Below are positions 15,210 through 58,261 of a stretch of DNA of 64,000 nt, piece by piece. The first letter of the stretch is position 1. Each line of letters begins with the position of its first letter. The notes beneath the pieces are model-generated. The model saw only the letters and a program-made list of their open reading frames with translations, was not told the DNA's origin and ran no database searches. The position numbers were made by a program, and so were the translations under genes. The DNA is from Saprospiraceae bacterium (lineage in GTDB: Bacteria; Bacteroidota; Bacteroidia; Chitinophagales; Saprospiraceae), in the NCBI GenBank assembly GCA_027080725.1, contig JALWRC010000080.1, forward strand, positions 62,001 through 126,000, in the 5' to 3' direction.

Positions 15210-17102
15210 ATGTGTGGGATTAACGGAATAATTGGGAATAAGGGCGTTCCCAAAGGGGAATTGAAAGAGGGCATTCTTCGAATGAATGCATTGCTTTCTC
15301 ATCGTGGCCCGGATCATCAAGACATTTATGTGTCCGATAAGGTAGGCTTAGGACATACCCGTTTGAGTATTCTGGATTTGACGGATGCGGGACATCAGCC
15401 CATGAAAACGCCTGACGAACGGTATGCTATTGTCCTCAATGGGGAAATATACAATCACCTCGAGATAAGACAAACATTGGAAGAGTTGGGATATCACTTT
15501 AGGGGGCATTCGGATACGGAAACCGTCCTTTATGGATTTGCCCAATGGGGGGAGGCCATTTTCCAAAAATTAAATGGAATATTTGCAGTAGGCATTTACG
15601 ATCAACAAAAAAAGGAGGTATATCTCGCAAGAGACCGGTTTGGCGTCAAACCATTATACTACTTCAAGGATCAAAGCAAACTGATTTTTAGCTCGGAGAT
15701 AAAATCCATTTTGGCAAGCGGAGTTTACCCAAAGCTCTCCTATAAGTCCTTGCACGAATTTTTATACTACGGTTACCCCTTAGGCGATCGAACGATGTTG
15801 GAAGGTATTAAGAAGGTATTGCCCGGTTATTATTTGAAAATCAGTCAACCATTTCATACCAAAAAATGCTGTTTTTGGAAGCCTGAAAATCTGCTTGAAC
15901 TGTCCCCCTTTGCTGATTCTGAAGAGGAAGCTATCAAGAAAACGAGAGCATTACTTGAAAAGGCGGTGCGCAGGCAATTGATGAGCGATGTACCGGTGGG
16001 GGTTTTTCTGAGTGGAGGTATTGATTCTTCCGCTATAACCGCCTTTGCTTCCAGGCATTTTCCCGGTAAGTTGAAGACCTATTCGACAGGGTTTGATTTT
16101 GATGAGGGTCATAATGAATTGCCCTTGGCGGCTGAAATAGCCAAGACCTTTGGTACAGAGCACCATGAGATGATGATTAGAGGTGCAGACTTGCCGGACA
16201 TTATAGAAAAACTGGTTGGGCAACACGATGCTCCTTTTAGTGATGCGGCCAATATTCCGCTATATCTCATGACTCGAGCATTGGGGGGTGACCCAAAAGT
16301 AATTCTGCAAGGGGATGGCGGAGATGAGTTGTTTGGAGGATATTCGCGTTATCATTTGATGACTAAATACAGACCGTATCGTACCATCTTAAACATCCTC
16401 AAGCCATTAAAGGGTATCCTTCCAAGTGCAAAACTACGGGCGAGAGTAGAGCGCTTTTACCCCGTATTTTCGGAGCGTGAAGATGGCAGGATGTTTGCAA
16501 AATTATTAACTTTAGAAACAGAAGAAAAAAGTCCGCTTCAAACATTGTCCATTCCATTTCATGAGAAAGCCAAATCTCATGACCCATTCGAGTATTATAC
16601 GGAGGTTGCTACTCGCTTCAACGGGCTCTCAGACCGCATACAGAAGTTGTTATGGCTGGATACTCAAATTATCTTGCCGGATCAGTTTCTTGAAAAAGTG
16701 GATAAAAGTACAATGGCCAATAGCATCGAAGTGCGAGTACCTTTTCTGGACAATGAACTGGCGGAATATGCCATGCGAATGCCTGCAAAGTACAAGCTTA
16801 AAGGTGGAATAAAAAAGTATATTCTCAAAAAAGCATTGGAAGGCATCGTTCCCGACAAGGTATTATACGGCCCCAAAAAAGGTTTCGGGGTGCCTTATGA
16901 AAATTGGTTAAAAGGCCCTCTTTCCGGATATTTAAAGGAGCGATTATTTTCAAGTGATTTTGCCAAATCAGGCATGATGGATAAGCGATATGTCAAAAGT
17001 CTCTTATCCAATCATTTATCTTCAAAACAAAACAATGGATTCATCCTTTGGAAATTGCTCAACCTGAGCATATGGTTGGAGAAGTATAAGGTAGAGATTT
17101 GA
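15210..17102 (+). CDS. asnB: Asparagine synthase (glutamine-hydrolysing) family amidotransferase, copy 2
   Basis: The 630-residue protein has the catalytic Cys2 (MCGINGIIGN), HRGPDHQDI, LNGEIYNHLEIRQ and RDRFGVKPLYYF in the glutaminase domain. The PP-loop FLSGGIDSSAIT lies near residues 266-277 and LQGDGGDELFGGYSRY further on. It is longer than copy 1 and clearly divergent from it, so the two are unlikely to be a recent duplication. Its neighbours are glycosyltransferases, so amidation of a sugar acid or an aminoacyl group on the polysaccharide is the likely role. One exact copy of the window's 13-bp word lies inside it at 15848-15860. Confidence 0.93.
   Translation: MCGINGIIGNKGVPKGELKEGILRMNALLSHRGPDHQDIYVSDKVGLGHTRLSILDLTDAGHQPMKTPDERYAIVLNGEIYNHLEIRQTLEELGYHFRGHSDTETVLYGFAQWGEAIFQKLNGIFAVGIYDQQKKEVYLARDRFGVKPLYYFKDQSKLIFSSEIKSILASGVYPKLSYKSLHEFLYYGYPLGDRTMLEGIKKVLPGYYLKISQPFHTKKCCFWKPENLLELSPFADSEEEAIKKTRALLEKAVRRQLMSDVPVGVFLSGGIDSSAITAFASRHFPGKLKTYSTGFDFDEGHNELPLAAEIAKTFGTEHHEMMIRGADLPDIIEKLVGQHDAPFSDAANIPLYLMTRALGGDPKVILQGDGGDELFGGYSRYHLMTKYRPYRTILNILKPLKGILPSAKLRARVERFYPVFSEREDGRMFAKLLTLETEEKSPLQTLSIPFHEKAKSHDPFEYYTEVATRFNGLSDRIQKLLWLDTQIILPDQFLEKVDKSTMANSIEVRVPFLDNELAEYAMRMPAKYKLKGGIKKYILKKALEGIVPDKVLYGPKKGFGVPYENWLKGPLSGYLKERLFSSDFAKSGMMDKRYVKSLLSNHLSSKQNNGFILWKLLNLSIWLEKYKVEI
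15848..15860 (+). repeat. 13-bp word ACCATTTCATACC inside asnB copy 2
   Basis: Exact copy, read as Gln-Pro-Phe-His-Thr codons in this gene. Other exact copies lie at 30395, 43601, 47325 (reverse), 48465, 58236 (reverse) and 58249. Confidence 0.75.
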
Positions 17103-18193
17103 AGGAGGGTAACAAAGCCAAAGTTCTATTTGTCGGCGCTTTTAAGACGGCCAAAGAAGCCGGCCATGCAGGGGGACAAATGTATGCCTGCACTTCTCTT
17201 ATTCAATCAGATATTCGAAAGCAGTTTTCATTTGTTTTATTGGACTCTACCGCGACGACCAATTTGAAAAGACCCTTGTACAACCGTTTATATTTCGCAA
17301 TTCTGCGAGTCGTTAAATTTCTTTGGCTGTTGCTCTTAAAACGCATTGATATAGTATTGGCTTTTAGCTCATATGGGGCAGGCTTTTTGGAGAAGGGAGG
17401 GATGATAGTTTTGGGTAAATGGATGGGAAAACGCACGGTGCTTGCTCCACGATCCGGCTTTTTATTGGACCATCTTGAGGCGTCCAACACCTTCAGAAAG
17501 GCGGCATCATATATTTTGAAGCATTGTGATGTCATCGTCTGTCAAGGTCAGTTTTGGAAGGAGTATTTCAATGAAAGAATGGGTGTTCCGAAGGACAGAT
17601 TGGAGGTGATACATAATTGGATAGATATAAGTCAATATGACAATAGTCCGAAAAAGAACGACACCACCTTACGGGTTCTTTTCCTTGGTTGGGTCGAAGA
17701 GAACAAAGGCATTTTTGATTTGATACAGGTCATTTATTCTTTAAAGGATAAAAACATCCATTGGTCGATAGCAGGAGAGGGGAAAGATTTTGAAATGGTC
17801 AAACAGTCTCTTTATCAAACAATGCAGGAGCAAAAAGTAGCTCTTTTGGGTTGGGTGACGGGTGAGCAAAAAAGGCGATTATTGCACGAATCCGACGTGA
17901 TTGTCATACCGTCTTACCGGGAGGGGTTGCCCAATGCCCTATTAGAAGGGATTGCCTCGCGGTGTGGTGTTATCGCGACAGATGTGGGGGCTATTCCGGA
18001 TGTCATAGAGGATGGGGTCAACGGTTTTTTAATTGAACCGGGTGATAGAAACGGGTTAAAAGAAAGCCTTTTAAGGTATTACAGAGACAGGCATTTGTTA
18101 AAGAAGCATATCGAGTTGTCTTTTATGAAATTGCAGAAGAATCATTCTTTGAAAGGAGCAGAAATCAAATTCTCAAAAATATTGCAAGTTTGA
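17099..18193 (+). CDS. Glycosyltransferase family 4 protein, TTG start
   Basis: The 364-residue GT-B enzyme has AKVLFVGAFKTAKEAGHAGG at the N terminus. The donor domain contains RVLFLGWVEENKGIFDLIQV, the EX7E motif in YREGLPNALLEGIASRCGV near residue 280, then DVGAIPDVIEDGVNGFLIEP. No ATG precedes the conserved first strand. The only workable start is TTG at 17099, overlapping the asnB stop as TTTGA. The next gene uses the same arrangement. Confidence 0.88.
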   Translation: MKEGNKAKVLFVGAFKTAKEAGHAGGQMYACTSLIQSDIRKQFSFVLLDSTATTNLKRPLYNRLYFAILRVVKFLWLLLLKRIDIVLAFSSYGAGFLEKGGMIVLGKWMGKRTVLAPRSGFLLDHLEASNTFRKAASYILKHCDVIVCQGQFWKEYFNERMGVPKDRLEVIHNWIDISQYDNSPKKNDTTLRVLFLGWVEENKGIFDLIQVIYSLKDKNIHWSIAGEGKDFEMVKQSLYQTMQEQKVALLGWVTGEQKRRLLHESDVIVIPSYREGLPNALLEGIASRCGVIATDVGAIPDVIEDGVNGFLIEPGDRNGLKESLLRYYRDRHLLKKHIELSFMKLQKNHSLKGAEIKFSKILQV

Positions 18194-19687: not shown

Positions 19688-21799
19688 ATGAAGCAAATCA
19701 TACAAGATTTAAGGTCGGGAGATACGATGTTGGTCGAAGTACCCGCACCCGTAGTACTACCCGGCCATGTGCTGATTCGAACCCAATATACTTTGGTGTC
19801 GAGGGGAACGGAGCGTATGTTGGTGGACTTTGGACGTGCAGGATGGATTGACAAAGCGCGTCAACAACCGGAAAAGGTCAAACAAGTCTTGCAAAAAGTG
19901 AAGACGGATGGCTTGATGCCTACTGTCCAAACGGTCATGCGCAAGCTCAATCAACCGATTCCTCTCGGGTACTCCAATGCAGGGACAGTCATGGCTGTTG
20001 GGAAAGGGGTCACACATGTTAAGCCCGGGGACCGCGTTGCCTCCAACGGGCCACATGCCGGGGTCGTCTTGGTGCCCAAGCACCTCGTAGCTAAAATACC
20101 GGATGAGGTAACGATGCAAGAAGGGGTATTTACGGTCATTGGCGCCATCGCCTTGCAAGGCATCCGGTTGGTCAAACCTGAACTGGGAGAGACTGTTGTC
20201 GTAACGGGACTCGGCCTGATAGGGCTGGTCGCCGGTCAGTTGCTGAAGGCGCACGGATGTAAGGTTATAGGGATAGAACCCGATGCTGGAAAAAGAAAAC
20301 TCGCCGAAGCCTTGGGTATCCATTCTGTCGATCCCGTGGTTTCAGATCCTGTCAACATGGTGATGCAAGCGACTCAAGCAGGAGCAGATGCCGTCCTTAT
20401 TACAGCCTCTTCCCGTAGTAATGACATCATTTCCCAAGCGGCCCGGATGTCGAGAAAGCGTGGAAGAATCGTTCTGACGGGAGTCATAGGTTTGGACATT
20501 AACCGAAGCGATTTTTATGAGAAGGAATTGAGTTTTCAAGTGTCCTGTTCCTACGGTCCGGGGCGGTATGATCCCGAGTATGAGGAGAAGGGAAATGATT
20601 ATCCGATAGGGTATGTCCGGTGGACGGAACAACGCAATTTTGAAGCGGTATTGGACAGCATGGCTTCCGGGATGCTCGATGTAAAAGCACTTATCAGCGA
20701 GATTAAAGACATAGACGCATTTGCGGAAATATACGGAAGTCTGGATGCTAGTGATAAAATCGCCTCCCTGCTGCATTACACCGAAGAAGCAACGGTGGAT
20801 AACAAAAAAATCCGGTTGTCAACCGGTACTTCAAGGGCAATAGACGGGGATATCGGCATCATTGGAGCCGGAAATTATACAAGCGCTATGATCTTGCCTG
20901 TACTCTCAAAGCTGAATGCAGGTATTTCGACTATTTGCAGTGCGCGCGGATTGTCCGCCACCCAACTCGCAAAAAAATACCACATCCCTGTTGTAATGAC
21001 GGATGCCTCAGAGCTGATGGAAGATAATAAAATACAGGCTGTCATCATCGCTACGAGACACGATGCGCATGCTCCGATGGTCGTAGAGGCCCTTAAACAG
21101 GATAAACAAGTGTTTGTCGAAAAGCCATTGGCGATACGACTCCGGGAGTTGGATGCCATCCAAGAGGAACTTTTCCATACGGAGGGCAGCTTGACAGTAG
21201 GGTTCAACCGGCGTTTTTCGCCGCATTCGAGGGCAGCCAAAAAGCTCCTCAGCACCTCAGGACCGGTCAATATCACCGCCACCATGAATGCGGGTTTTAT
21301 ACCCCGGGAGCACTGGATTCAAGATCCGGATATAGGCGGCGGACGCATCATTGGAGAGGCCTGTCATCTGATCGACCTATTGGTGTATTTGACCGGAAGT
21401 AAAGTGCAATCGGTCATGATGAATACCCTCCATCCGGGAACACCCGAAAGCGGGGATAACGCCTCTATTCTTCTACGCTTCGAAAATGGATCGAACGGAA
21501 CCATCCATTACTTTTCCAATGGACATAAATCCTATCCCAAGGAGCGCATAGAGGTATATGCTGAGGGTCGAACCCTCGTTATCGATAATTTCAGACGTTC
21601 ACACTATTTTGGCTTCAAAAAGTCCGGAATGAAGACCAAGCAAGATAAAGGGCAGTATGAAATGTTTAAAACATTGCTGGCACAATGGAAAAAGGGGGGC
21701 AGTCCAATCATCCCCGTCGATGAAATAATAAATGTATCAAGAACCTCTATTCTGGCGTTGGAAAGTGTGAAGAGCGGTGGCTGGGTGGAGGTGAAATGA
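19688..21799 (+). CDS. Bi-domain oxidoreductase: zinc-type alcohol dehydrogenase fused to Gfo/Idh/MocA
   Basis: The 703-residue fusion protein has an MDR-type dehydrogenase in residues 1 to about 350 (PLGYSNAGTVMAVGKGVTHV, GDRVASNGPHAGV, Rossmann VVTGLGLIGLVAGQLL). A Gfo/Idh/MocA dehydrogenase fills residues from about 375 to 700 (GDIGIIGAGNYTSAMILPVL, QVFVEKPLAIRLREL, GRIIGEACHLIDLL). The fusion is a known architecture in surface-glycan loci, usually next to heparinase-like proteins as here. It is expected to oxidise or reduce a nucleotide sugar or a glycan-linked sugar. The 43-base gap upstream contains a purine-rich ribosome-binding region. Confidence 0.91.
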   Translation: MKQIIQDLRSGDTMLVEVPAPVVLPGHVLIRTQYTLVSRGTERMLVDFGRAGWIDKARQQPEKVKQVLQKVKTDGLMPTVQTVMRKLNQPIPLGYSNAGTVMAVGKGVTHVKPGDRVASNGPHAGVVLVPKHLVAKIPDEVTMQEGVFTVIGAIALQGIRLVKPELGETVVVTGLGLIGLVAGQLLKAHGCKVIGIEPDAGKRKLAEALGIHSVDPVVSDPVNMVMQATQAGADAVLITASSRSNDIISQAARMSRKRGRIVLTGVIGLDINRSDFYEKELSFQVSCSYGPGRYDPEYEEKGNDYPIGYVRWTEQRNFEAVLDSMASGMLDVKALISEIKDIDAFAEIYGSLDASDKIASLLHYTEEATVDNKKIRLSTGTSRAIDGDIGIIGAGNYTSAMILPVLSKLNAGISTICSARGLSATQLAKKYHIPVVMTDASELMEDNKIQAVIIATRHDAHAPMVVEALKQDKQVFVEKPLAIRLRELDAIQEELFHTEGSLTVGFNRRFSPHSRAAKKLLSTSGPVNITATMNAGFIPREHWIQDPDIGGGRIIGEACHLIDLLVYLTGSKVQSVMMNTLHPGTPESGDNASILLRFENGSNGTIHYFSNGHKSYPKERIEVYAEGRTLVIDNFRRSHYFGFKKSGMKTKQDKGQYEMFKTLLAQWKKGGSPIIPVDEIINVSRTSILALESVKSGGWVEVK

Positions 21800-21817
21800 C
21801 AAAAGGGAGGAACACCT

Positions 21818-23199: not shown

Positions 23200-24800
23200 T
23201 GCACCTCATTCGACTATTTCATACCGTAAGACACCTGAAAAGAAAACAGCTGGTCTATCGGATAAAATACGAGGTACTGCGGCGTTGGAGCGCTACATCC
23301 GGAATGCATTTTGAGGAGCTGGCCCTTCCGGTTATTCCCCGGATGCAATCCACCATTTCAAGCCCTCAAAGATACATCCATCCCGGCCGGTTCGAATTGC
23401 TGAATATCCGGGTGGAATATCCCGCGGGGAAGATCAACTGGAACGATGGACGGCAGGGGAAGTTGTGGCTGTATCATCTGTGCGCGATGGAGTATCTGAT
23501 GCATGAGGAGATGGGGAGAGATGCCGGGTTGGAGTTGATACGGGACATCATGCGTTTCGAGGGGCTGAGGGATGGTCTGGAGCCTTGGCCCATGTCCCTT
23601 CGCCTGATGAATACGATTCGTTTTTTGGTTCGGCATGGGGTGAATGACGGGGAAATAAACGGATGGTTGAAAGAACAGGCTCGTCGTCTGTCTTACCGGC
23701 TCGAATGGCATCTGATGGCCAATCATCTGTTGGAAAATCTCTTTGCATTGGTGATAACCGGGCTTTTTCTGGGAGACAAGTCCGCCGTAAAGCGTTTTGG
23801 TCCCCTTTTGGAGAAGCAACTGGCGGAACAGATATTGGAAGATGGCGGACACTTCGAGCGTAGCCCGATGTACCATGCGGTAATGCTCCAAAGAGTGCTC
23901 GATGTGTACCATATTCAGCAAGGGGTGCCGGGGACAATACAGGCCGTCCAACAGGAGAGATTGGCCAATTTGGCCGGCAGTATGTTGGCTTGGTTACAGG
24001 AAATGACGATGCCGGATGGACGGTGGGCGCACTTCAATGACAGTACGGAGGGGATAGCCCCTTCAACAGGACAGTTGGCCACTTACGCTAAAGCCCTTGG
24101 GATCGCAGCTGAGGAGGGAATACTTAACGCTTCAGGCTATAGGAGATATAGGCGGAATGGATATGAACTGGTGGTGGATGTAGGCGATATCGGGCCGGAT
24201 TATCAGCCCGGTCATGCACACTGTGACACCTTTAGTTTTGTACTGTATGCAGGGGCGCATCCCTTCATTGTGGACACGGGTATTTCGACCTATGAGCGCG
24301 GAGAAAAGAGGAATTCAGAACGTTCGACCGCCGCTCACAACACGGTCCGGGTAGCCGGAGTCGAACAGTCGGATATCTGGGCTGCATTCCGCGTAGGAAG
24401 CAGGGCAAAAATCATTAGGGTCGAAGACAGGGATACCGGGGTTGTAGCCGCGCATGATGGATATCGCCGATTGGGAGTAACGCATGAGCGAAGCATAGAG
24501 TGCCCCCCCGGAAAAGTGGTGATCAAAGATCGTCTGAGCGGTAAAAAACCGGTAGGAGCGCCGGAAGCCTTCTTTCATTTTAGTCCGGAAGTGGAACTCA
24601 TACAAGTTACAGAGAAAGAAGTTTCCACTTCATTGGGGAGTCTGATGTTCGTAGGGGCATCGGGGATAGAAATGCTTGAATATGAAATGGGAGCGGGTTT
24701 TAACCGAAGAGAAAAGGCTCTAGGTGTGAAGGTGATTTTTGAAGACCGGTTGACGACTCATATTGTGATGAAAGACGGGTCCGGAGGGGGATTAAAGTAA
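23199..24800 (+). CDS. Heparinase II/III-like protein (alginate-lyase fold)
   Basis: The protein has about 533 residues. Its N-terminal helical toroid starts HLIRLFHTVRHLKRKQLVYR and includes HLMANHLLENLFALVITGLF. The C-terminal beta-sandwich has the Hepar_II_III signature QPGHAHCDTFSFVLYAG, then DTGISTYERGEKRNSERSTA and AAHNTVRVAGVEQ. Known members cleave uronic-acid polysaccharides by beta-elimination. Biosynthetic-locus members next to a bi-domain oxidoreductase are common, and their reaction is less certain. The ATG at 23199 lies at the right copy of the 22-bp repeat and lacks a clear Shine-Dalgarno, which fits a start displaced by the upstream insertion. Confidence 0.88.
   Translation: MHLIRLFHTVRHLKRKQLVYRIKYEVLRRWSATSGMHFEELALPVIPRMQSTISSPQRYIHPGRFELLNIRVEYPAGKINWNDGRQGKLWLYHLCAMEYLMHEEMGRDAGLELIRDIMRFEGLRDGLEPWPMSLRLMNTIRFLVRHGVNDGEINGWLKEQARRLSYRLEWHLMANHLLENLFALVITGLFLGDKSAVKRFGPLLEKQLAEQILEDGGHFERSPMYHAVMLQRVLDVYHIQQGVPGTIQAVQQERLANLAGSMLAWLQEMTMPDGRWAHFNDSTEGIAPSTGQLATYAKALGIAAEEGILNASGYRRYRRNGYELVVDVGDIGPDYQPGHAHCDTFSFVLYAGAHPFIVDTGISTYERGEKRNSERSTAAHNTVRVAGVEQSDIWAAFRVGSRAKIIRVEDRDTGVVAAHDGYRRLGVTHERSIECPPGKVVIKDRLSGKKPVGAPEAFFHFSPEVELIQVTEKEVSTSLGSLMFVGASGIEMLEYEMGAGFNRREKALGVKVIFEDRLTTHIVMKDGSGGGLK
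23200..23221 (+). repeat. Right 22-bp direct repeat at the heparinase start
   Basis: Second copy of the repeat at 21818-21839. It spans the start codon (ATG, 23199-23201) and the first seven codons of the present heparinase gene. Its last bases also form a 12-of-13 match to the window's 13-bp word (23213-23225). Confidence 0.75.
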
Positions 24801-43523: not shown

Positions 43524-46079
43524 ATGAAGAAAGTATATCCTATTGCAATAGCCGCTATTCTGGGTTCCACCTTATTGTTTTTTGGAGGGGGCTTTGTTCG
43601 ACCATTTCATACCTCGACTTCTTATGACCTCTCAATATTTCGTCCTGTAGACGAGGAAGAAAATCCCGGAGAGAACTGGATGTTCACTCAGCGCGCCTAC
43701 CCGGTTGGGGCGATTCCTCCCGATGCGCGATACCGGGCAAAACGCCATATCAAAAAGCATTTTTTGAGTTTGCGCTCCGGAGAAATGGCAAAGCAAATCG
43801 GACCCCGGAATATCGGTGGGAGGATAACGGATATCGAAATATTGGACGATACTGATACTTCGATTTATCTCGGCACTGCATCTGGTGGCGTCTTTCTCTC
43901 GAAGGACATGGGCGGGCACTGGCGACCTATTTTTGACAAAACCCTTACTTTGGCGATTGGAGATATAGCCATCGCCCCGTCCAATAGCAAGCGCATCTAC
44001 GTCGGCACCGGTGAACCCAACGGGGGAGGCGGCTCCATCGCCTACGAAGGCAGCGGGGTCTTCACCAGTCAAGATGGTGGAGAGACATGGAAACGCGCCG
44101 GTCTGCGCAGAAGTGGAAGTATCGGTCAAATTGCCGTTGACCCACGGGATGAAAACCGTCTTTTTGCAGCAGCTATGGGCCCCCTTTATCGCAAGGGGGA
44201 ACAACGCGGGCTGTACCGGTCCGAAGATGCAGGCAAGTCATGGGAACGCTTGCTCTACGTGAATGATTCTACCGGTATCATTCAGGTACTAATAGATCCT
44301 CTGCATCCGGATACCATGTATGCGGTGGCATGGGAGCGGTTTAAGACCACTACTCGCCGGGACTACGGTGGACCTGCTTCCGGAATATACAAATCGACCG
44401 ACGGGGGAGATCATTGGGACAAATTAATGCAGGACTTGCCGGATGAACCCGGGGGATTCAACCGGATTAGCATCGCCATCTCTCCTCAAAAGACCAATAT
44501 CCTTTATGCGCTATTCCTCGACAGAGTTGGACACCTCTACGGATTGTATCGCTCGGAAGATTACGGCGAGCATTGGAAGCAGCTGCAGCGATGGCGACAA
44601 GGAGGCCCCTCCTATGGATATTGGTTTGGCGGACTCCGGGTTTCGCCCGATGATCCGGACTTGTTGTATTATTTGGGATTTTTCTTTATGCATTCGGTTG
44701 ATGGTGGCAAAAGTTGGAACAGTAACGAAAGCATCCACGTGGACCAACATGCCATGGCCTTTTTTCCCGGTAGAAAAGGCTCCTTTTTGGTCGGCAACGA
44801 TGGAGGATTGTATTTGACGGACAATGGAGGAAAGTCGTTTACACACTATAAAAACTTGCCCATCACGCAATACTACAAAATACATGTAGATGCCTCTGAT
44901 GAAAATCGTATCTACTGTGGAGCGCAAGATAATAATACGACCCGCACGATCAACGGCTCTCCGGACCATTTCAGTTTTATTCTCGGCGGAGATGGCTTTA
45001 AAGCCACGGTACACCCCACTCGACCCAACAGAATTTATGCGGAATATCAATACGGCAATCTCTTTCGATCCGATGACGATGGAAAGAATTTTGCCCGTGT
45101 TATTACGGGATTAGAAGGAAGGGAGCCTTACAACTGGAACTTCCCCTATGTCCTTTCGCCCCAACACCCGGATACGATGTACTGTGGCTCCAATCGCATT
45201 TACATGAGTGAAAACGGAGGGGACTTGTGGGTTCCCATTAGTCCCAGGTTGACCCGGCGAAACTATTCCGGCAATCAGACGTTTGGTACGGTCACAACCA
45301 TCGATGTCTCCCGGCTCGATGACCAACTCATCTACGCCGGGACGGATGACGGCAAGGTGTGGGGCTCCCGGGATCAAGGAGAGAACTGGACAGACCTCTC
45401 TGCCGGATTGCCCAATCGCTGGGTCACCAAGGTGTTGGCATCCCGCCGGCACTCCTCCTGGGTTTGGGTGGCTTTCTCGGGGTACCGGCATGGCCCCAAT
45501 GACGGTCATGTTTTTCTTTCTAAGGATTACGGCGAAACCTGGCAAAATGTAACCGGCAACCTGGCGGATATGCCGGTCAACGATCTCGAAGAGGATGCGG
45601 GGGGCCGGATTTACGCCGCCACGGATATGGGCTTGTACATGAATTCCGTCGAAATGCCCGCTTTGACATGGTCCGTTTTCGGAGACAATCTATTGCCGTT
45701 GATTGTTATGGATTTACAATATTATCCGCCTCATTTCTTGTATGCAGGCACTTATGGACGCTCGGGATATCGCATCAAGACACCTCCCCCCCTCTCGTCT
45801 AAAACTCCGGACTCTGTTCTTGCCCTGTGGGACATCCGGACCGTACGTGTCCGCCCGGGAGTTTTGGAATTACAACTGCAAGGGCAAAATATGCCCCGGA
45901 ACCTGAAGGCCCGCATCTCGGATTTGAATGGACAAGCGTTAACGGAATTTTCCCTTTCCAAATCAAAGACTGACACGAAGTACCGCACTCCTTTGCCTTC
46001 ATTGCCGGCAGGTATGTGTTGGCTCACTGTCCGGGGGAATAATGAAATCCGAAGCCGTAAGTTTGTTTTGACCCGGTAA
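43524..46079 (+). CDS. Exported Asp-box (BNR/sortilin-like) beta-propeller protein with T9SS-like tail
   Basis: The 851-residue protein has a signal segment (PIAIAAILGSTLLFFGGGF). At least ten Asp-box repeats of the S-x-D-x-G-x-x-W type follow (SKDMGGHWRPI, SQDGGETWKRA, SEDAGKSWERL, STDGGDHWDKL, SEDYGEHWKQL, SVDGGKSWNS, SKDYGETWQNV), spaced as in two stacked propellers of the VPS10/xyloglucanase-like kind. The last 80 residues (LKARISDLNGQALTEF, LPAGMCWLTVRGNNE) look like a T9SS type A sorting domain. No catalytic residues are recognised; glycan binding or protein interaction at the cell surface is likely. Confidence 0.82.
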   Translation: MKKVYPIAIAAILGSTLLFFGGGFVRPFHTSTSYDLSIFRPVDEEENPGENWMFTQRAYPVGAIPPDARYRAKRHIKKHFLSLRSGEMAKQIGPRNIGGRITDIEILDDTDTSIYLGTASGGVFLSKDMGGHWRPIFDKTLTLAIGDIAIAPSNSKRIYVGTGEPNGGGGSIAYEGSGVFTSQDGGETWKRAGLRRSGSIGQIAVDPRDENRLFAAAMGPLYRKGEQRGLYRSEDAGKSWERLLYVNDSTGIIQVLIDPLHPDTMYAVAWERFKTTTRRDYGGPASGIYKSTDGGDHWDKLMQDLPDEPGGFNRISIAISPQKTNILYALFLDRVGHLYGLYRSEDYGEHWKQLQRWRQGGPSYGYWFGGLRVSPDDPDLLYYLGFFFMHSVDGGKSWNSNESIHVDQHAMAFFPGRKGSFLVGNDGGLYLTDNGGKSFTHYKNLPITQYYKIHVDASDENRIYCGAQDNNTTRTINGSPDHFSFILGGDGFKATVHPTRPNRIYAEYQYGNLFRSDDDGKNFARVITGLEGREPYNWNFPYVLSPQHPDTMYCGSNRIYMSENGGDLWVPISPRLTRRNYSGNQTFGTVTTIDVSRLDDQLIYAGTDDGKVWGSRDQGENWTDLSAGLPNRWVTKVLASRRHSSWVWVAFSGYRHGPNDGHVFLSKDYGETWQNVTGNLADMPVNDLEEDAGGRIYAATDMGLYMNSVEMPALTWSVFGDNLLPLIVMDLQYYPPHFLYAGTYGRSGYRIKTPPPLSSKTPDSVLALWDIRTVRVRPGVLELQLQGQNMPRNLKARISDLNGQALTEFSLSKSKTDTKYRTPLPSLPAGMCWLTVRGNNEIRSRKFVLTR
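43601..43613 (+). repeat. 13-bp word ACCATTTCATACC in the Asp-box gene
   Basis: Exact copy, in the codon region just after the signal peptide (Arg-Pro-Phe-His-Thr). Confidence 0.75.
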
Positions 46080-46134: not shown

Positions 46135-47733
46135 CTACCTGGCATCGTAATCCTTGCCATCTTCCAGGATGCGCTTGCGATGGATATCAAATCCTGGGTG
46201 GACAAAGCTCCTCTCCGGGACAAAAAACGGGGTTTTGACCCCACTCAAGTCGATGAGGGCATGAAACAGATCATCCGTCACTACCGGCCGCCGTCGAATA
46301 GAATCGCTAATCCGGCCATACAGAAAGTCCCTTCCTTCCGGAGTCCACAGAAGAAGGGGAATCTCTACATTGCAGCGCGGCAAAACACCGGAATAATCGT
46401 GCCCTACTCTGTCCCCTTCGTCATAGACGTTCTCCCCATGATCGGAGAGGTACAACGCAAGAACCTCCTCCCTCGGATGGCGGGCGGTATACCCACTCAG
46501 CACAGAAAAAACACGGTCCACCACATAATCATTGTACAAGACACTGTTGTCGTATTGGGCGATGAGGTGCGCTTTGGAATTGTGACCGGAGAAGTGACTA
46601 AAAGCGCCCGGGTAACGCTTTGCATAAGCCGTGTGGTTGCCCATGAGATGAAGGACAATAAACTTTTTACCGGCCGTATCTCCTAGGGCCTTTTGTAGCG
46701 GGACGAAGAGATTTTCGTCATATGCCGCTTGATTAGTAGCTTCAAAGGAAGAAGAGCTGCTCGTGTTGATGAAGCGGACGACATCCGATTTGCGTCCCAT
46801 CGCACTCACCATGTTATCCCAGACACCGACAGGGGGTTGGTTGGACAACCAAAAGGTCTTAAATCCGGCAGAATGCAGCACATCGATGATATCCACCGTT
46901 CGATTGACGGGTTGCCGGTTGTCGAGATTGGAGGAGGAGAGCATCGCCAAAACGCTGCTCATCGTATTGGAGTACGGGGCCACAGCATCGGTAAACACGG
47001 CAATATCCCGGCGTTTATCCAGCCGTGGGGTGGTCTTCCGGCTGTATCCATAGAGCGACATATGGTTGCGATTGGCCGACTCCCCGATGACCAATACCAG
47101 TGTACAGGGCTCCGGAAGTGCACTCGTGGCTTGCACTTTCTTCGGGCGCACTTTTTTTAAAAAATCACGGTAGGTTTGAATCTGACTTGTCAATTGTCGT
47201 GCGACCTTGACCGTGTGGGGTACGCCCTTTCTGAAGAACCTGTGATGCAGTATGTTTTCACCGATAAAAAGAAGGGAGAAGGTCAGGACCAGAAGTGATA
47301 TCCGGGAGAGGTGTTTTGTTTTTTGGTATGAAATGGTAGAGCGCAGGGCTCGGATAAAAATCCAGACGTAAGGCAAGACGATTAGCAAACCCATTCCCGA
47401 TTTGAGTTGGATAAAATCTATTGATTCATCCAAATTGGTGTTGGCTATAACCAGTAAGGAGGTGGTGCTCAAAGGGCCACGCAAGATGACCCAATGGATG
47501 ATTTCGACCAATCCCATGAGGAAGAAGAGGATACAAGCCAACCGGTAAACCATCGGTCTTCGCAGCCAGAGAGCGGGAAGGGTAAAAAGCGGAATCCACG
47601 CAAGGGCGATCGCCAATTGGCGGCTATCCGACAAAGGATACCGGATCGCGACTCCGGCCAACCAAGGAGCCCAAGCCAACAAAAGGAGCCAGGGAGGATA
47701 AATTTGAAAAAGGGCAGATCGTATGCGTTTCAT
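46135..47733 (-). CDS. Phosphoethanolamine transferase-like sulfatase-fold membrane protein
   Basis: The 532-residue protein has about five N-terminal membrane helices (WLLLLAWAPWLAGVAI, LACILFFLMGLVEIIHWVI, LLIVLPYVWIFIRAL, ISLLVLTFSLLFIGENIL). The periplasmic alkaline-phosphatase/sulfatase domain has VLVIGESANRNHMSLYGYSR (Ser in place of the usual Thr nucleophile), FIVLHLMGNHTAYAKRYP and ALYLSDHGENVYDEGDRVGH, carrying the zinc ligands. EptA/CptA-type enzymes move phosphoethanolamine to lipid A or core sugars. The substrate here is inferred only from the family. It is first of a minus-strand group with the CopD-like gene 13 bases upstream. Confidence 0.86.
   Translation of the reverse strand: MKRIRSALFQIYPPWLLLLAWAPWLAGVAIRYPLSDSRQLAIALAWIPLFTLPALWLRRPMVYRLACILFFLMGLVEIIHWVILRGPLSTTSLLVIANTNLDESIDFIQLKSGMGLLIVLPYVWIFIRALRSTISYQKTKHLSRISLLVLTFSLLFIGENILHHRFFRKGVPHTVKVARQLTSQIQTYRDFLKKVRPKKVQATSALPEPCTLVLVIGESANRNHMSLYGYSRKTTPRLDKRRDIAVFTDAVAPYSNTMSSVLAMLSSSNLDNRQPVNRTVDIIDVLHSAGFKTFWLSNQPPVGVWDNMVSAMGRKSDVVRFINTSSSSSFEATNQAAYDENLFVPLQKALGDTAGKKFIVLHLMGNHTAYAKRYPGAFSHFSGHNSKAHLIAQYDNSVLYNDYVVDRVFSVLSGYTARHPREEVLALYLSDHGENVYDEGDRVGHDYSGVLPRCNVEIPLLLWTPEGRDFLYGRISDSIRRRPVVTDDLFHALIDLSGVKTPFFVPERSFVHPGFDIHRKRILEDGKDYDAR
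47325..47337 (-). repeat. 13-bp word, reverse copy, in the phosphoethanolamine transferase-like gene
   Basis: GGTATGAAATGGT on the plus strand. Here it encodes Thr-Ile-Ser-Tyr at the end of a membrane helix, in a different reading frame from the copies in asnB and the Asp-box gene. Confidence 0.75.
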
Positions 47734-48253: not shown

Positions 48254-49471
48254 CTATCGTCCGGTAATCTTAAACGATTGAACACCGGAGTCGGTTCGGA
48301 TACGCAGAAGGTAAAAGCAATTATCAGGTAGAGGATAAGTTATCAAGTGGGTCTCAGAATTGCTTTGTACGATGCGGAAGGGAATGGCGCGGCCACTCAA
48401 ATCACAAAGGAAGAGGGCTCGTTCGGGCAGATAGCCCGGAATCCGGAGCTGCAGCCTGTGGTCCACCATTTCATACCTGATAGAGCGCTTGAATCCGGTC
48501 ATAGGATACAAACCGGTTGAAGGGCCAAGCTCAAAGGCTTTTGTGTCGATTAGCCGGTCATTGCGGTAAAGGGCGACTTTCCATAGACCCCATTGAGGGG
48601 CGGCGGGAAAGTCAATATACGAGGCGTAGTAATAGTACCACCAATCTTTCAAAATAGTGCCGGTGTATTCAAACCACAACGTGCCGGAAGGAGTAGTCCA
48701 ACGGATCGTCAGCTCATCCCCTTTGCGCAGGCCATACATCAGAGACCAGAAAGCGATGACCGAATCCGACGGGGTAAACCGGGTCCGGTCCATGACCCGG
48801 AAACGCATGGAGTCCAGCGGGGGTAAAAAATTCATCATCCCGTCGTCCCATACATGAAAAGTTGTGTCATAGGGTAGCGCAGAAATCCACCGGGATTTGG
48901 GATTGCCACAAGGACCCGCGAAAGGATCTACCAAACTCAAAGAGTCATACCATGTCTCGAAGTGCAAGTGCGGGTCGGTCGAATTGCCGGAACTACCGAC
49001 TTGTGCGATGCGCTGTCCGGCGGAGACATGATCCCCGACCTGTACCAGCATGCTGTTTTTCTTGAGATGGGCATAATAGCTGTACATCTTATTGGGATGC
49101 CGTACAGCGATGTAATTGCCAAAACCTTTGGACTTGTCCGATACGGTATTTTTATCGTATTCTCCATCGTGAATGAATGTGACGATACCGGTATCGGCAG
49201 CGAGTACAAACACCCCGGAATCCATCTGCGGAAAACTCCGGAGGACGATATCGGTCCCTTGGTGTCCCTCATAGGTTTTGGTGCCACACATATGGTCCTT
49301 GATGCCGCCCCAATCCACATAATTGACGATGATATAATCCTCACCGTAAGACCCTTCAATAGGGGTGACAAATTGGGGGTTTTGCCCGGAGGTGAATGTA
49401 CTCATCAGCAGGTATATCCCTACTATACAAGTGCTCATAATTGCATTGGTTCGAGAGAGCCTAATATTCAT
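48254..49471 (-). CDS. M23-family metallopeptidase with T9SS-type tail
   Basis: The 405-residue exported protein has a signal (IMSTCIVGIYLLMSTFTSG). The LytM/M23 domain carries zinc ligands in YEGHQGTDIVL (His-x3-Asp) and DPHLHFETWYD (His-x-His), with GNYIAVRHPNKMYSYYAHL between them. A beta-sandwich middle part is followed by a C-terminal sorting-like domain (LFLCDLSGRAIPFRIV, PDNCFYLLRIRTDSG). M23 enzymes cut peptidoglycan cross-links; a T9SS tail suggests a secreted form acting on other cells or on the surface. One exact 13-bp word lies within it (48465-48477). Confidence 0.87.
   Translation of the reverse strand: MNIRLSRTNAIMSTCIVGIYLLMSTFTSGQNPQFVTPIEGSYGEDYIIVNYVDWGGIKDHMCGTKTYEGHQGTDIVLRSFPQMDSGVFVLAADTGIVTFIHDGEYDKNTVSDKSKGFGNYIAVRHPNKMYSYYAHLKKNSMLVQVGDHVSAGQRIAQVGSSGNSTDPHLHFETWYDSLSLVDPFAGPCGNPKSRWISALPYDTTFHVWDDGMMNFLPPLDSMRFRVMDRTRFTPSDSVIAFWSLMYGLRKGDELTIRWTTPSGTLWFEYTGTILKDWWYYYYASYIDFPAAPQWGLWKVALYRNDRLIDTKAFELGPSTGLYPMTGFKRSIRYEMVDHRLQLRIPGYLPERALFLCDLSGRAIPFRIVQSNSETHLITYPLPDNCFYLLRIRTDSGVQSFKITGR
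48465..48477 (+). repeat. 13-bp word ACCATTTCATACC in the M23 gene
   Basis: Exact copy on the plus strand within a minus-strand gene. It is read there as Arg-Tyr-Glu-Met-Val, unlike the plus-strand gene copies. Confidence 0.75.
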
Positions 49472-51017: not shown

Positions 51018-51689
51018 ATGAAAAAAATATCTATATTAATGATTGCTTTATCAGGCATGTTTTCAATGGCCTGTTCTCCAAAATCTTCACCTGAACAGTC
51101 CGTTTCCAATAAGGATAATGCAGCCTACGAAAAAAGCATGGGGGAAGCCTTTTCCTTGTTCAAACAGGGAAAATTGGAACGAGCGTCATTGGTTTTTGAA
51201 CGCATTGCCCAAGTGGAGAAAGGCAACTGGATCCCTTCCTATTATGCGGCTCATACCAACATCCTGCAGGTGTTTGCTACTACAGATAAGTCAAAAGGAG
51301 AAGAACTTCTACAAAGAGCTGAGAAATATCTTAAGCAAGCACAAAGTATCGCACCTCGTAACTCTGAAGTCGAGACCTTACAAGGTGTTTATTATACAGC
51401 AAAGATTGTCTTAGATCCGATGGTCAATGGTATGAAATTCTCTGCCCCGGCATTGTCTGCATTTGAAAAGGCCAAGCAATTGGACCCCTCCAATCCGCGT
51501 CCTGTATATCTTGCGGCACAATTTCAGATCAATGCATCTAAGTTCATGGGAGGAGATCCGGCTTCGTATTGTGCCGAAATAAAACGAGTGATTCCCATGT
51601 TTGATGCTTTCTCTCCCAAGCAAAAATTCGCCCCGAGATGGGGAAAAGAGCAGGCTTTAAAGGTATTAAGGTCGAGTCCATGCAAATAG
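51018..51689 (+). CDS. TPR-type lipoprotein
   Basis: The protein has about 223 residues from the ATG at 51018; a TTG at 51006 would break the signal. The lipoprotein signal is KISILMIALSGMFSMAC, with Cys near residue 19. The rest is made of helical hairpins of TPR kind (SMGEAFSLFKQGKLERASLV, EELLQRAEKYLKQAQSIAPR, ALSAFEKAKQLDPSNPRPVY). It lies 77 bases upstream of a TonB-dependent receptor gene, so the two may be co-transcribed. Function is unknown. Confidence 0.78.
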   Translation: MKKISILMIALSGMFSMACSPKSSPEQSVSNKDNAAYEKSMGEAFSLFKQGKLERASLVFERIAQVEKGNWIPSYYAAHTNILQVFATTDKSKGEELLQRAEKYLKQAQSIAPRNSEVETLQGVYYTAKIVLDPMVNGMKFSAPALSAFEKAKQLDPSNPRPVYLAAQFQINASKFMGGDPASYCAEIKRVIPMFDAFSPKQKFAPRWGKEQALKVLRSSPCK

Positions 51690-51742: not shown

Positions 51743-51755
51743 ACCATTTCATACA
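51743..51755 (+). repeat. Near-copy (12 of 13) of the 13-bp word before the TonB receptor gene
   Basis: ACCATTTCATACA, 12 bases before the start codon. It is intergenic and sits where a ribosome-binding or regulatory site would be expected. Confidence 0.5.
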
Positions 51756-51766: not shown

Positions 51767-54115
51767 ATGAAAAAACAGATGATTATTTTAGTGATGTATT
51801 TTATCTCTATCGTACTTTTATCCGGGCAAAGCACGGAGACCGGGGTCGTCAGAGGGACCATCCTCGACAAGGAGACAGAGCTTCCGATTATCGGTGCGGA
51901 GGTCGTTGTATTGGGAAGTGACCCAATGATCGGGAGCATAACAGATTTGGACGGAAGGTTTAGATTGACGGGGGTTCCCTTGGGCAGGTTCAACCTGCGG
52001 GTGACCTACTTGGGATACAAGCCTGCCGTATTGCGCAATCTGCAAGTGGTTAAGGGGAAGCAAACAGTGTTGCAAATTCCCTTGGAAGAACAAGTGCATA
52101 GCCTTAAGGCGGTCGTCGTCACCGCCCGGCAAAACAAGGCCAAGGTTTCCAACGAAATGGCAGCGGTCAGTGCCCGCACTTTTACCATCGAAGAGACGGA
52201 AAAGTATGCCGGAAGTTTGGGGGATCCATCGCGTATGGCAGCCAACTTTGCCGGGGTTTCTTCGGTGGCAGATCAGCGAAACGACATTGTTATTCGCGGC
52301 AATGCCCCTACGGGATTGCTTTGGCGATTGGACGGGATTGACATCCCCAATCCCAATCACTTTGGCGCTTCCGGGTCGACAGGAGGGCCGGTAAGTATGC
52401 TCAACAACAATGTCCTGGCCAATTCAGAATTTTATACGAGTGCCTTTCCCGCCCAATATGGCAATGCTCTTTCGGGAGTGTTTGACCTCAAAATGCGCAA
52501 TGGAAACAACGAAAAGCACGAGTTTTTGGGACAAGTAGGGTTTAATGGTTTCGAACTCGGTGCCGAAGGACCCATAGGAAAAGGACGTGCATCCTATTTG
52601 GTCAATGCGCGGTATTCGACCCTCGAAGTACTCCAAAAGCTCCATTTGGATGTGAGTACCGGTCAAGCCGTGCCCCAATACAAAGACCTCGTCTTCCGGG
52701 TCAATGTTCCTGTCGGCAAGTACGACCGTTTCTCCCTATTTGGCATGGGAGGATTGAGTTATATCGAACTGTTTGACAGTGGTAAGGAACACACGAGTTT
52801 CGGTTTTGGTGGGGTCGATATCACTTTCGGATCTGACATGGGAGTTACAGGAGCAAATTACACCCATTATTTCGATAAGAACACCCGTTTGAACACCCAT
52901 TTTGCCGTGTTGGGTTCGAAGGTGTCTACACGATTGGACTCGTTGGATAAAGAGTACAAGCCAAATTTCCTCTACTACCAATCCGGAATCAAAGAGACGC
53001 GATACAATCTCGGACTTGATTTGCACAGAAGGCTAAGTACACAAAACAGCTTCGTAACCGGATGGAATGTCAAGCGGATTCATATAAACTACAGAGACTC
53101 TGTCCTTTTGAGTGGGGAGTATATTCCTCAGTTGGACATCAACAAATCGGTGCACTTGCTTCAGGCATATGGTCAGTATAAATACAAAATGACCGACGCT
53201 GTTTCCTTTACAGGCGGACTCTATGGACAGTATTTGGATTTCAATAAGACCTATGCTGTGGAGCCCAGATTGGGCATGAAATGGCACCTTCAAGAAGATC
53301 AAATCATCAGCGTGGGGGCCGGTTTTCACAGTCAGATGCAGGTATTGGGATTTTACTTTATCAAGAATAACGACGGAGCGACAACCAACGAAGATCTCGA
53401 CTTCACAAAGGCCGCACACGCAGTCGTATCGTATGATTGGAATATCAACAGCGATTTCAGGTTTAAGGTAGAATCGTATTATCAACATCTGTATCAAGTG
53501 CCTGTTACAGACCAAAGGCCGGAGTTCTCTTTGCTCAACATTGGAGATGATTTTGCTTCGTTTGCCTATGACAATATGGTCAATGAGGGAGAAGGGCAAA
53601 ATTATGGACTGGAGTTTACCGTAGAAAAATTCTTGAGCAAAGGGTATTATTTTCTCAGTACGGTCTCTCTTTTTGAGTCGAAATACAAGGGGTATGACGG
53701 GATAGAACGCAACACCAAATTCAATGGTAATTTTGTCGTCAACCTCCTCGGAGGATATGAATATAAGGTGTCGAAGCATGGTGTTTTGGGCTTGGATGTC
53801 AAGACGGTTTACGCCGGGGGTAAGCGATATGTTCCGATTGATGTTGCCAAGAGCAAGCAGCAGCATCGCGAGGTTTTGGATTGGGCACATGCCTACGAAG
53901 ACCGGTTGGATGACTATTTTAGGCTTAATGCACGTATTTCCTTCCGGCTCAACTCGAAGAGAAGAAACTTCAGTCAGGAATGGGCGTTGGATCTTCTGAA
54001 TCTCACCAATCATGACAATATTTACTCGAGAAAGTGGGATGCTGCATCCAATGCTATTCGCACAGATTATCAACAGAAGTTCTTCCCGATGTTTACTTAC
54101 CGGATTTATTTTTAA
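51767..54115 (+). CDS. TonB-dependent receptor with carboxypeptidase-regulatory-like domain
   Basis: The 782-residue outer-membrane protein has a signal peptide (MIILVMYFISIVLLSG). An N-terminal CarboxypepD_reg-like domain follows (VVRGTILDKETELPIIGAEV, DLDGRFRLTGVPLGRFNLRV), then a plug domain (NDIVIRGNAPTGLLWRLDG, GNALSGVFDLKMRNGN) and a 22-strand barrel to the C-terminal Phe (MFTYRIYF). There is no adjacent SusD-like gene, so it is not a canonical SusCD pair. The ligand is unknown. It is followed by a LytS-type kinase gene 45 bases downstream. Confidence 0.9.
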   Translation: MKKQMIILVMYFISIVLLSGQSTETGVVRGTILDKETELPIIGAEVVVLGSDPMIGSITDLDGRFRLTGVPLGRFNLRVTYLGYKPAVLRNLQVVKGKQTVLQIPLEEQVHSLKAVVVTARQNKAKVSNEMAAVSARTFTIEETEKYAGSLGDPSRMAANFAGVSSVADQRNDIVIRGNAPTGLLWRLDGIDIPNPNHFGASGSTGGPVSMLNNNVLANSEFYTSAFPAQYGNALSGVFDLKMRNGNNEKHEFLGQVGFNGFELGAEGPIGKGRASYLVNARYSTLEVLQKLHLDVSTGQAVPQYKDLVFRVNVPVGKYDRFSLFGMGGLSYIELFDSGKEHTSFGFGGVDITFGSDMGVTGANYTHYFDKNTRLNTHFAVLGSKVSTRLDSLDKEYKPNFLYYQSGIKETRYNLGLDLHRRLSTQNSFVTGWNVKRIHINYRDSVLLSGEYIPQLDINKSVHLLQAYGQYKYKMTDAVSFTGGLYGQYLDFNKTYAVEPRLGMKWHLQEDQIISVGAGFHSQMQVLGFYFIKNNDGATTNEDLDFTKAAHAVVSYDWNINSDFRFKVESYYQHLYQVPVTDQRPEFSLLNIGDDFASFAYDNMVNEGEGQNYGLEFTVEKFLSKGYYFLSTVSLFESKYKGYDGIERNTKFNGNFVVNLLGGYEYKVSKHGVLGLDVKTVYAGGKRYVPIDVAKSKQQHREVLDWAHAYEDRLDDYFRLNARISFRLNSKRRNFSQEWALDLLNLTNHDNIYSRKWDAASNAIRTDYQQKFFPMFTYRIYF

Positions 54116-58218: not shown

Positions 58219-58235
58219 CACATCGTTATTTTTGT

Positions 58236-58261
58236 GGTATGAAATGGTACCATTTCATACC
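58236..58261. repeat. Perfect 26-bp palindrome made of two head-to-head 13-bp words
   Basis: GGTATGAAATGGT (58236-58248) is joined directly to ACCATTTCATACC (58249-58261), giving perfect dyad symmetry. It lies in the 214-base spacer between the outer-membrane protein gene and bamD, about 110 bases before the bamD -7 element. It could serve as a regulator-binding site, a cruciform or a terminator-like hairpin without a U-run. Confidence 0.8.

What the first reader, a model, noticed from the sequence alone, without database searches (positions are those of the whole stretch)
15848..58261. A 13-bp word, ACCATTTCATACC, is strongly over-represented across unrelated genes and spacers
Exact copies are at 15848, 30395, 43601, 47325 (reverse), 48465, 58236 (reverse) and 58249. 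One chosen 13-mer is expected about 0.002 times in 64 kb on both strands at equal base use. Near-copies (12 of 13) occur at 23213, 40664 (reverse) and 51743. The 10-base core is also at 4336, 39621 and 51429. The copies are read in different frames and strands and also lie between genes, so selection must act on DNA. Candidates are an uptake or recombination signal, a chromosome-organisation site, or a widespread regulator site.
Basis: seen in the sequence. Interest (0 to 1): 0.72.

Follow-up and report, generated by a model that had tools for sequence, protein, structure and literature searches.

The report
Genome-wide DNA-uptake-like word in Saprospiraceae
Two groups of uncultured Saprospiraceae bacteria carry hundreds of copies of one 13-letter DNA word with most of the sequence hallmarks of a self-DNA recognition tag for DNA uptake, a tag so far described in two families of quite different bacteria that use type IV pili, whose motor protein was not found here.

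Summary
The window holds 7 exact copies of ACCATTTCATACC. Its genome (3.80 Mb) holds 383 (192 + 191 by strand; reversed control 0). A same-genus genome holds 237. A second genus of the family holds a looser dialect (773-833 copies with up to 2 mismatches, control 49-51). The other 394 of 398 family genomes have 0-3.

The word matches most of the printed signature of Haemophilus USS and Neisseria DUS: no strand bias, coding and (enriched) non-coding copies, outward inverted pairs, an almost invariant core (ATTTCAT), steep fall of excess with mismatches, A-rich 3' flank, dialects. Not met or open: density is lower, spacing is not clearly even, and perfect copies only about equal singly mismatched ones. 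Some copies persist in diverged orthologues; more have turned over.

Both genomes have ComEC, DprA, a triple-HhH protein and an outer-membrane barrel plus DUF5689 lipoprotein like the pair essential for transformation in Riemerella, but no PilB/PilT-type ATPase was found.

Best reading: a DNA uptake sequence outside Neisseriaceae and Pasteurellaceae, probably read without type IV pili. Uptake and receptor are inferred; many relatives with the same genes lack the word.

The parts
15848..15860 (+). exact word, inside the asparagine-synthase-like gene 15210-17102
30395..30407 (+). exact word, intergenic
43601..43613 (+). exact word, near the 5' end of the BNR/Vps10-like gene 43524-46079
47325..47337 (-). 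exact word, inside the sulfatase gene 46135-47733 (-)
48465..48477 (+). exact word, antisense inside the M23 peptidase gene 48254-49471 (-); 13/13 in the aligned G001 orthologue at local identity 0.38
58236..58248 (-). exact word, left arm of a perfect 26-bp palindrome, intergenic
58249..58261 (+). exact word, right arm of the same palindrome; no terminator-like site is called there
4336..4348 (-). near copy ACAATTTCATACC (12/13), core intact
4480..4492 (-). near copy GCCATTTCATACA (11/13), core intact
21654..21666 (-). near copy AACATTTCATACT (11/13), core intact
23213..23225 (+). near copy ACTATTTCATACC (12/13), core intact; the related segment 21815-21863 lacks the end of the word
34916..34928 (+). 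near copy ACCATTTCATATT (11/13), core intact
39618..39630 (+). near copy GCGATTTCATACC (11/13), core intact
40664..40676 (-). near copy ACCATTTCATACG (12/13), core intact
51429..51441 (-). near copy AGAATTTCATACC (11/13), core intact
51743..51755 (+). near copy ACCATTTCATACA (12/13), core intact, 11 bases before the ORF start at 51767
53273..53285 (-). near copy GCCATTTCATGCC (11/13), core intact
63501..63513 (+). near copy ACAATTTCATGCC (11/13), core intact

Best explanation
ACCATTTCATACC, with preferred flank T(C/G)N before it and an A-rich tract at +3 to +7 after it, is a DNA uptake sequence: a self-recognition tag that an outer-membrane DNA receptor binds during natural transformation, so that DNA carrying the tag is taken up and recombined preferentially and tagged alleles accumulate. 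Shown: over-representation, strict core, extended flank, placement, partial conservation and phylogenetic range. Inferred: that it acts in uptake. Inferred with less confidence: that the receptor is the outer-membrane barrel plus DUF5689 lipoprotein pair, like the pair essential for transformation in Riemerella anatipestifer, followed by HhH protein, ComEC and DprA, with no type IV pilus. The confidence given is for the uptake-sequence claim; the receptor part is scored in the section on the most novel reading.
For: 383 exact and 779 up-to-one-mismatch copies in G000, 237 and 637 in G001; controls 0 and 0 for exact, 7 and 8 for one mismatch. Obs/exp by mismatch load 2943, 60, 6.2, 1.6, 1.1 in G000, the kind of fall printed for Haemophilus and Neisseria (PMC1939737, passages). 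0 of 67 single-mismatch copies touch the core ATTTCAT in the G000 sample, 1 of 43 in 360 kb of G001. No strand bias (192:191) and none against GC skew (39:38, 34:30; 9 and 2 copies in low-skew stretches dropped). 48 of 86 copies outside called genes, with 17.5% of bases outside them. Outward-facing inverted pairs. T at -3, C at -2 and A-rich +3..+7, in coding copies too. Dialect in a second genus. In-gene orthologous copies 13/13 in 3 of 9, 12/13 in 1 of 9. ComEC, DprA, triple HhH next to ComEC, DUF5689x2 lipoprotein after a barrel gene, no T2SSE-family ATPase found. Most of these are the USS/DUS marks listed in PMC1626085 (passages). Essentiality of the Riemerella pair is from PMC8459023 (passages); tonB mutants there transform less, which those authors put down partly to iron (PMC8383284, passages).
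Against: No uptake assay; uncultured MAGs. Density is about 1 exact copy per 10 kb (1 per 5 kb at one mismatch), below the roughly 1 per kb printed for USS/DUS. [quoted passage not shown] here they are about equal (383:396 and 237:400 for the 13-mer; 119:121 and 153:122 for CCATTTCATAC in the samples). More even spacing than random is not established (P 0.02 to 0.54 by set). ComEC and DUF5689 are common in relatives (27 and 25 of 30 genomes), yet 394 of 398 family genomes lack the word, so the machinery does not predict the tag. 5 of 9 in-gene copies are not kept in G001, and for intergenic copies only 2 of 16 copy-by-flanking-gene comparisons found an exact word near the same gene end (both the arms of one palindrome), 1 of 8 from the G001 side. 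The barrel fragment has no Pfam match. The DUF5689 lipoproteins are net acidic.
Confidence: 0.68

Rival explanations
1. A chromosome-organisation or nucleoid-protein site (matS-, Noc-, KOPS- or Chi-like): a cytoplasmic DNA-binding protein reads the word across the chromosome.
For: Genome-wide, both strands, coding and non-coding, DNA-level constraint. Contigs are unordered, so a regional pattern cannot be fully excluded.
Against: No strand bias and none against GC skew, unlike KOPS or Chi (recalled). Exact copies occur in 37 of 41 sampled G000 stretches, 0-5 per 20-kb stretch, with no sign of a single macrodomain. A 13-bp asymmetric word with an almost invariant core and outward inverted pairs is not usual for such sites (recalled). 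5 of 9 in-gene sites turned over between congeners.
Confidence: 0.15
2. A site for a widespread transcription regulator or an RNA-level signal (terminator, processing site).
For: 3.2-fold enrichment outside called genes; the window's inverted pair folds into a hairpin on either strand.
Against: 38 of 86 copies are inside genes, 21 sense and 17 antisense. No fixed distance to gene starts in the list. Convergent gaps are not enriched (0.25 and 0.24 per kb against 0.25-0.49 elsewhere). The flank after the word is A-rich rather than T-rich, and no terminator-like site is called at the window palindrome. Regulator sites are said to have a more relaxed consensus (PMC1626085, passage).
Confidence: 0.07
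3. A tiny mobile or copied element (REP/MITE-like) that inserts the word.
For: Near-identity of copies; a 25-bp tandem array carrying the word in G001; dispersed longer repeats also exist in the window.
Against: No shared flank beyond a few weighted positions. 13 bp is not a multiple of three, yet copies sit in open genes. Orthologues lacking the word align without a gap at the word in 4 of 5 cases, though at local identity of only 0.35-0.56.
Confidence: 0.04
4. A sub-reading of the best explanation: an uptake sequence, but read by a receptor other than the barrel/DUF5689 pair, or by a pilus-like machine that the T2SSE search missed.
For: The word is absent from most relatives although DUF5689 is common among those searched; no direct link between word and receptor was shown.
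Against: No PF00437 match in G000 or G001, while 14 of 14 control genomes ring, 13 over the cut-off. The Riemerella pair is the only adjacent outer-membrane/surface pair essential for transformation in the phylum that my searches found (PMC8459023, passages).
Confidence: 0.3

Closest known systems
Haemophilus/Pasteurellaceae uptake signal sequence (USS)
   Same: Short strict core, AT-rich tract 3' of the core, both strands equal, non-coding enrichment, inverted pairs, subclade dialects, evolution by substitution rather than insertion (PMC1626085, passages).
   Different: Different phylum; 13-bp word rather than a 9-bp core; about one tenth the density; perfect copies about equal singly mismatched ones; no T2SSE ATPase found, so no type IV pilus machine detected.
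Neisseria DNA uptake sequence (DUS) and ComP
   Same: 10-13 nt word, strict consensus, relatives share it, inverted pairs (PMC1626085 and PMC12616744, passages).
   Different: DUS has no flanking motifs; inverted DUS pairs can act as terminators (recalled) whereas here the outer flank is A-rich; ComP is a type IV minor pilin.
Riemerella anatipestifer/columbina transformation
   Same: Bacteroidota; outer-membrane protein plus DUF5689/DUF5017 lipoprotein, HhH, ComEC, DprA (PMC8459023, passages); R. columbina DNA competes with its own uptake better than foreign DNA does (PMC7965970, section 16).
   Different: The published k-mer table for Riemerella lists only A/T-rich words and leaves their function open (PMC7965970, section 16); no specific tag is described there.

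Membership tests
DNA uptake sequences (USS/DUS) | Strong genome-wide over-representation of one word | tested here: met
   383 in G000, 237 in G001, control 0
DNA uptake sequences (USS/DUS) | Density near one copy per kb | tested here: not met
   0.10 exact per kb in G000; 0.20 per kb with up to one mismatch; about 0.3 per kb with up to two mismatches in genus g84
DNA uptake sequences (USS/DUS) | No orientation bias | tested here: met
   192:191 in G000, 123:114 in G001; 39:38 and 34:30 against GC skew. In g84 exact copies are 16:30 and 14:17, up to two mismatches 404:429 and 372:401
DNA uptake sequences (USS/DUS) | Enriched in non-coding DNA, many copies in genes | tested here: met
   48 of 86 outside called genes, 38 inside; P 1.5e-15, and 1.4e-12 without the 6 copies in stretches picked for pairs; G001 37 of 66
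DNA uptake sequences (USS/DUS) | Closely spaced, oppositely oriented pairs | tested here: met
   7 outward pairs with a gap of at most 30 bp in G000, 5 of them abutting; in the samples 9 of 11 pairs with starts at most 80 bp apart face outward, 2 are direct, 0 inward
DNA uptake sequences (USS/DUS) | Spacing more regular than random | tested here: inconclusive
   P 0.0185 and 0.19; 0.076, 0.065 and 0.54
[quoted passage not shown]
   about equal: 383:396 and 237:400 for the 13-mer, 119:121 and 153:122 for CCATTTCATAC in the samples, where chance gives about 0.5:15-16. Within the core ATTTCAT the consensus is very strong: 0 of 67 and 1 of 43 single-mismatch copies hit it
DNA uptake sequences (USS/DUS) | Present in other members of the genus or family, with dialects | tested here: met
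   genus g1 2 of 2; genus g84 2 of 2 with a looser form
DNA uptake sequences (USS/DUS) | Bearer is naturally competent and takes up word-bearing DNA preferentially | not testable with these tools
   needs a culture
DNA uptake sequences (USS/DUS) | Type IV pilus machinery with a word-binding minor pilin | tested here: not met
   no PF00437 match in G000 (100% complete) or G001 (94%); other pilus families were not searched; a property of the known cases rather than of the tag itself
Riemerella-type transformation apparatus | Outer-membrane barrel gene followed by DUF5689/DUF5017 lipoprotein | tested here: met
   G000:C64 and G001:C65; DUF5017 just under its cut-off; NCBIfam lipo_M949_1556 at E 1.9e-70 but below its cut-off, a gene name that occurs in R. 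anatipestifer papers (listing only); the barrel itself is recognised by position and pattern, not by a Pfam match
Riemerella-type transformation apparatus | ComEC, DprA and a HhH protein | tested here: met
   HhH triplet about 0.9 kb after ComEC's domain in G000; whether it is the orthologue of RA0C_RS02645 was not tested
Riemerella-type transformation apparatus | DUF1343 protein, ComF and TonB dependence | not tested

The most novel reading that the evidence does not exclude
A DNA uptake sequence read by a pilus-free, TonB-receptor-type DNA importer (outer-membrane barrel plus tandem-DUF5689 surface lipoprotein) in Bacteroidota: self-recognition in transformation has arisen a third time, with an unrelated receptor, and is diversifying into genus dialects.
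Probability: 0.42. Interest if true: 0.92.

Novelty: new variant of a known kind. Interest (0 to 1): 0.83.

Why it matters
[quoted passage not shown] A third, independent case in another phylum would test why such tags evolve (drive by a biased receptor versus selection for self-DNA). It would point to a receptor in the poorly understood transformation machinery of Bacteroidota and predict high recombination in an uncultured group.

Tried and rejected
Looked for comparable words in six other family genera (G002, G003, G005, G008, G013, G014) and one genome of another family, G027 (7-71 kb each). No word with unrelated flanks reached a comparable excess. G014 had 12-mers with 4 copies in 32 kb, but the two families whose flanks I could see or infer share their flanks, so a longer dispersed repeat; other top words were local repeats, G+C-rich coding words or low-complexity. 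G005 and G027 had too little sequence (14 and 7 kb) to judge. A dialect at lower density in these genera is not excluded.

The second record found by the palindrome pattern (CALGJS01) has only 3 copies in its genome, all within 60 bp beside a hairpin, so it is not a bearer.

The paired pattern found nothing in viral contigs. No solved-structure relative by sequence for either receptor candidate at E up to 1. Paper searches listed no paper that from its title or abstract describes an uptake sequence in Bacteroidota, apart from the open k-mer table in PMC7965970; one search listed 25 of 130 hits, and most subscription papers and preprints are not held.

Sampling caveats: the G000 contigs were chosen because one search listed words on them at high coordinates (long contigs). 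The stretches on C47, C61 and C110 were taken partly because they held inverted pairs (3 pairs, 6 copies). The G001 contigs were picked because they held the word; those went by number. Sampled densities and pair counts are therefore somewhat high; whole-genome counts are not affected. Gene calls are my own ORF caller. In one search copies in stretches with GC skew under 0.5% were dropped (9 of 86 and 2 of 66); G-rich strand is only a proxy for replication direction. In one search the alignment at window 48465 may be partly anchored by the peptide the word encodes. Flank preferences are weaker in G001 (T at -3 in its intergenic copies P 0.07; T-rich -19..-16 P 0.02).
Full report
OBSERVATION. 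The reported copies are present. With up to two mismatches the window has 23 matches, against a mean of 1.92 in shuffles. The window lies in a 3,803,690-base genome of 110 contigs (G000, contig C80, 62001-126000). That genome has 192 forward and 191 reverse exact copies and none of the reversed control; with one mismatch allowed, 380 + 399 against a control of 2 + 5. A 782,358-base sample has 86 exact copies where an order-4 Markov model expects 0.10.

WHO HAS IT. The congener G001 has 123 + 114 exact copies. Its contig C121 agrees in length, places and genome-wide counts with JALSTN010000121.1, titled a Saprospiraceae MAG, so I take the window to be from Saprospiraceae (Bacteroidota). Among 398 genomes drawn from the family only genus g1 (383, 237) and genus g84 (G086 16 + 30, G178 14 + 17 exact, in about 2.5 and 2.4 Mb) are enriched; the other 394 have 0-3. 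With up to two mismatches the g84 genomes have 833 and 773 copies against controls of 51 and 49. The list for G086 is capped; of its 54 listed single-mismatch copies, 28 change position 13, 17 position 3, 6 position 8, and 1 each positions 1, 11 and 12 (counted by hand). The g84 form is therefore a looser dialect, roughly ACNATTT(C/T)ATACN.

ANATOMY. In the G000 sample all 67 single-mismatch copies differ at positions 1, 2, 3, 11, 12 or 13; none touch ATTTCAT. In 360 kb of G001, 1 of 43 does. The excess falls with mismatch load as 2943, 60, 6.2, 1.6, 1.1-fold in G000 and 2174, 86, 5.2, 1.4, 1.05 in G001. For comparison, the drops printed for H. influenzae and N. gonorrhoeae are 92- and 82-fold from load 0 to 1, then 9- and 7-fold (PMC1939737, passages); here they are 49- and 9.7-fold (G000) and 25- and 16.6-fold (G001). 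Perfect and singly mismatched copies are about equal (383:396, 237:400; 119:121 and 153:122 for the 11-mer CCATTTCATAC), whereas USS and DUS have many more perfect ones. The flanks prefer T at -3 (71%), C at -2 (63%) and A at +3 to +7 (52% against 28% background, P 4e-25) in G000. The same features appear more weakly in G001 (52%, 43%, 47%), and they hold for copies inside genes. Close pairs face outward with the A-rich side out: 9 of 11 pairs with starts within 80 bp in the samples, 2 direct, 0 inward. Genome-wide, 7 outward pairs have a gap of at most 30 bp in G000, 5 of them abutting as a perfect 26-bp palindrome, as at window 58236-58261. The window palindrome folds into a hairpin but no terminator-like site is called there.

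PLACEMENT. 48 of 86 sampled copies are outside called genes, which cover 82% of the sample; 37 of 66 in G001. Inside genes the word lies sense (21) and antisense (17), in every frame except the antisense one that would give TGA. There is no bias toward the G-rich strand (39:38; 34:30, after dropping 9 and 2 copies in low-skew stretches). Exact copies occur in 37 of 41 sampled G000 stretches; the four without are two of 20 kb, one of 10 kb and one of 4 kb. Spacing is at most slightly more even than random (P 0.0185 and 0.19; 0.076, 0.065 and 0.54), so this is inconclusive.

CONSERVATION. G000 and G001 are far apart: 69.5% identity over 91,760 alignable bases, with only 272 of 17,161 control 13-mers identical; 2 of 4 G000 words in those alignments are identical and a third is 12/13. 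Of 9 G000 in-gene copies whose orthologue was also sampled (these include those), 3 are identical, 1 is 12/13 and 5 have 3-8 matches; of 5 G001 in-gene copies, 3 are identical (the same three) and 2 have 7-8. One of the identical ones is the window copy at 48465, where flanking identity is 0.38; that alignment may be partly anchored by the word itself. In 4 of the 5 lost cases the orthologue aligns without a gap at the word, at low local identity, so words appear to come and go by substitution rather than insertion. Intergenic copies turn over more: only 2 of 16 copy-by-flanking-gene comparisons found an exact word within 100 bp of the same gene end in G001 (the two arms of one palindrome against one word), two more found one beyond 600 bp, and 1 of 8 from the G001 side.

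MACHINERY. ComEC is present in both genomes and DprA in both. A protein with three HhH motifs lies about 0.9 kb after the ComEC domain (G000:C64:97077-97703; same contig in G001, C64). G000:C64:77760-79022 holds a two-copy DUF5689 lipoprotein with a weak C-terminal DUF5017 and a choice-of-anchor J domain, directly after the C-terminal part of an outer-membrane-barrel-like protein, 16 kb from ComEC. The two-gene order holds in all 12 loci held of the 25 genomes with a DUF5689 match. In R. anatipestifer markerless mutants of such a pair (RA0C_RS04915, carboxypeptidase-regulatory outer-membrane protein; RA0C_RS04920, DUF5689/DUF5017) could not be transformed, and ComEC, DprA and a HhH protein are also essential (PMC8459023, passages). 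The barrel fragment here matched no Pfam family and only weakly a TonB-siderophore model (E 0.071), so its identity rests on gene order and pattern. No PF00437 ATPase (PilB/PilT type) was found in G000 or G001, while 14 of 14 control genomes ring, 13 over the cut-off; other pilus families were not searched. Competence genes of g84 were not searched.

INTERPRETATION. [quoted passage not shown] Met here: orientation, opposed pairs, placement, presence in relatives with a dialect, A-rich 3' flank. Not met: density. Open: regular spacing, and the perfect-to-mismatched ratio (strict in the core, about even for the whole word). I judge this a DNA uptake sequence (0.68). That it is read by the barrel/DUF5689 pair without pili is the bolder step (0.42): the pair is common in relatives but the word is not, so the link is by analogy with Riemerella only. 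R. columbina prefers its own DNA, but its published k-mer table lists only A/T-rich words (PMC7965970, section 16).

NOVELTY. A 2025 paper calls Neisseriaceae and Pasteurellaceae the only families known to have such discrimination (PMC12616744, passage). Searches listed no uptake sequence established in Bacteroidota in the held library. It works like a USS/DUS; full membership needs an uptake assay.

Noticed in passing
window 36873-37622: Tandem array of about 12 copies of a 63-bp unit (21 codons), 90% matches, inside overlapping ORFs on both strands.
   Followed up: no
window 13900-14067, 38298-38382, 62797-62877: Dispersed repeats of 81-85 bp, 94-96% identical, that look like pieces of one longer element.
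   Followed up: no
window 32998-33130 and 62613-62722: Second dispersed repeat family (33 + 71 bp, 86-94% identical) 29.6 kb apart.
   Followed up: no
window 21815-21863 and 23197-23245: Two related segments, only one of which carries a near-perfect word; a possible local gain or loss of a word.
   Followed up: no
L087 about 15410-15540 (G001): Tandem array of 25-bp units, five of them with CCATTTCATAC on the minus strand: a minisatellite built from the word.
   Followed up: partly
L036 1597-1656: In a genome otherwise lacking the word, three copies flank a GAGACAAGGCATGCCTTGTCTC hairpin.
   Followed up: partly
L183 and L186: DUF5689 open frames of the word-bearing genus are less acidic (net -18 and -13) than the seven other Saprospiraceae ones counted (-20 to -78); one from another family is +5; L184 and L188 were not counted.
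   Followed up: no
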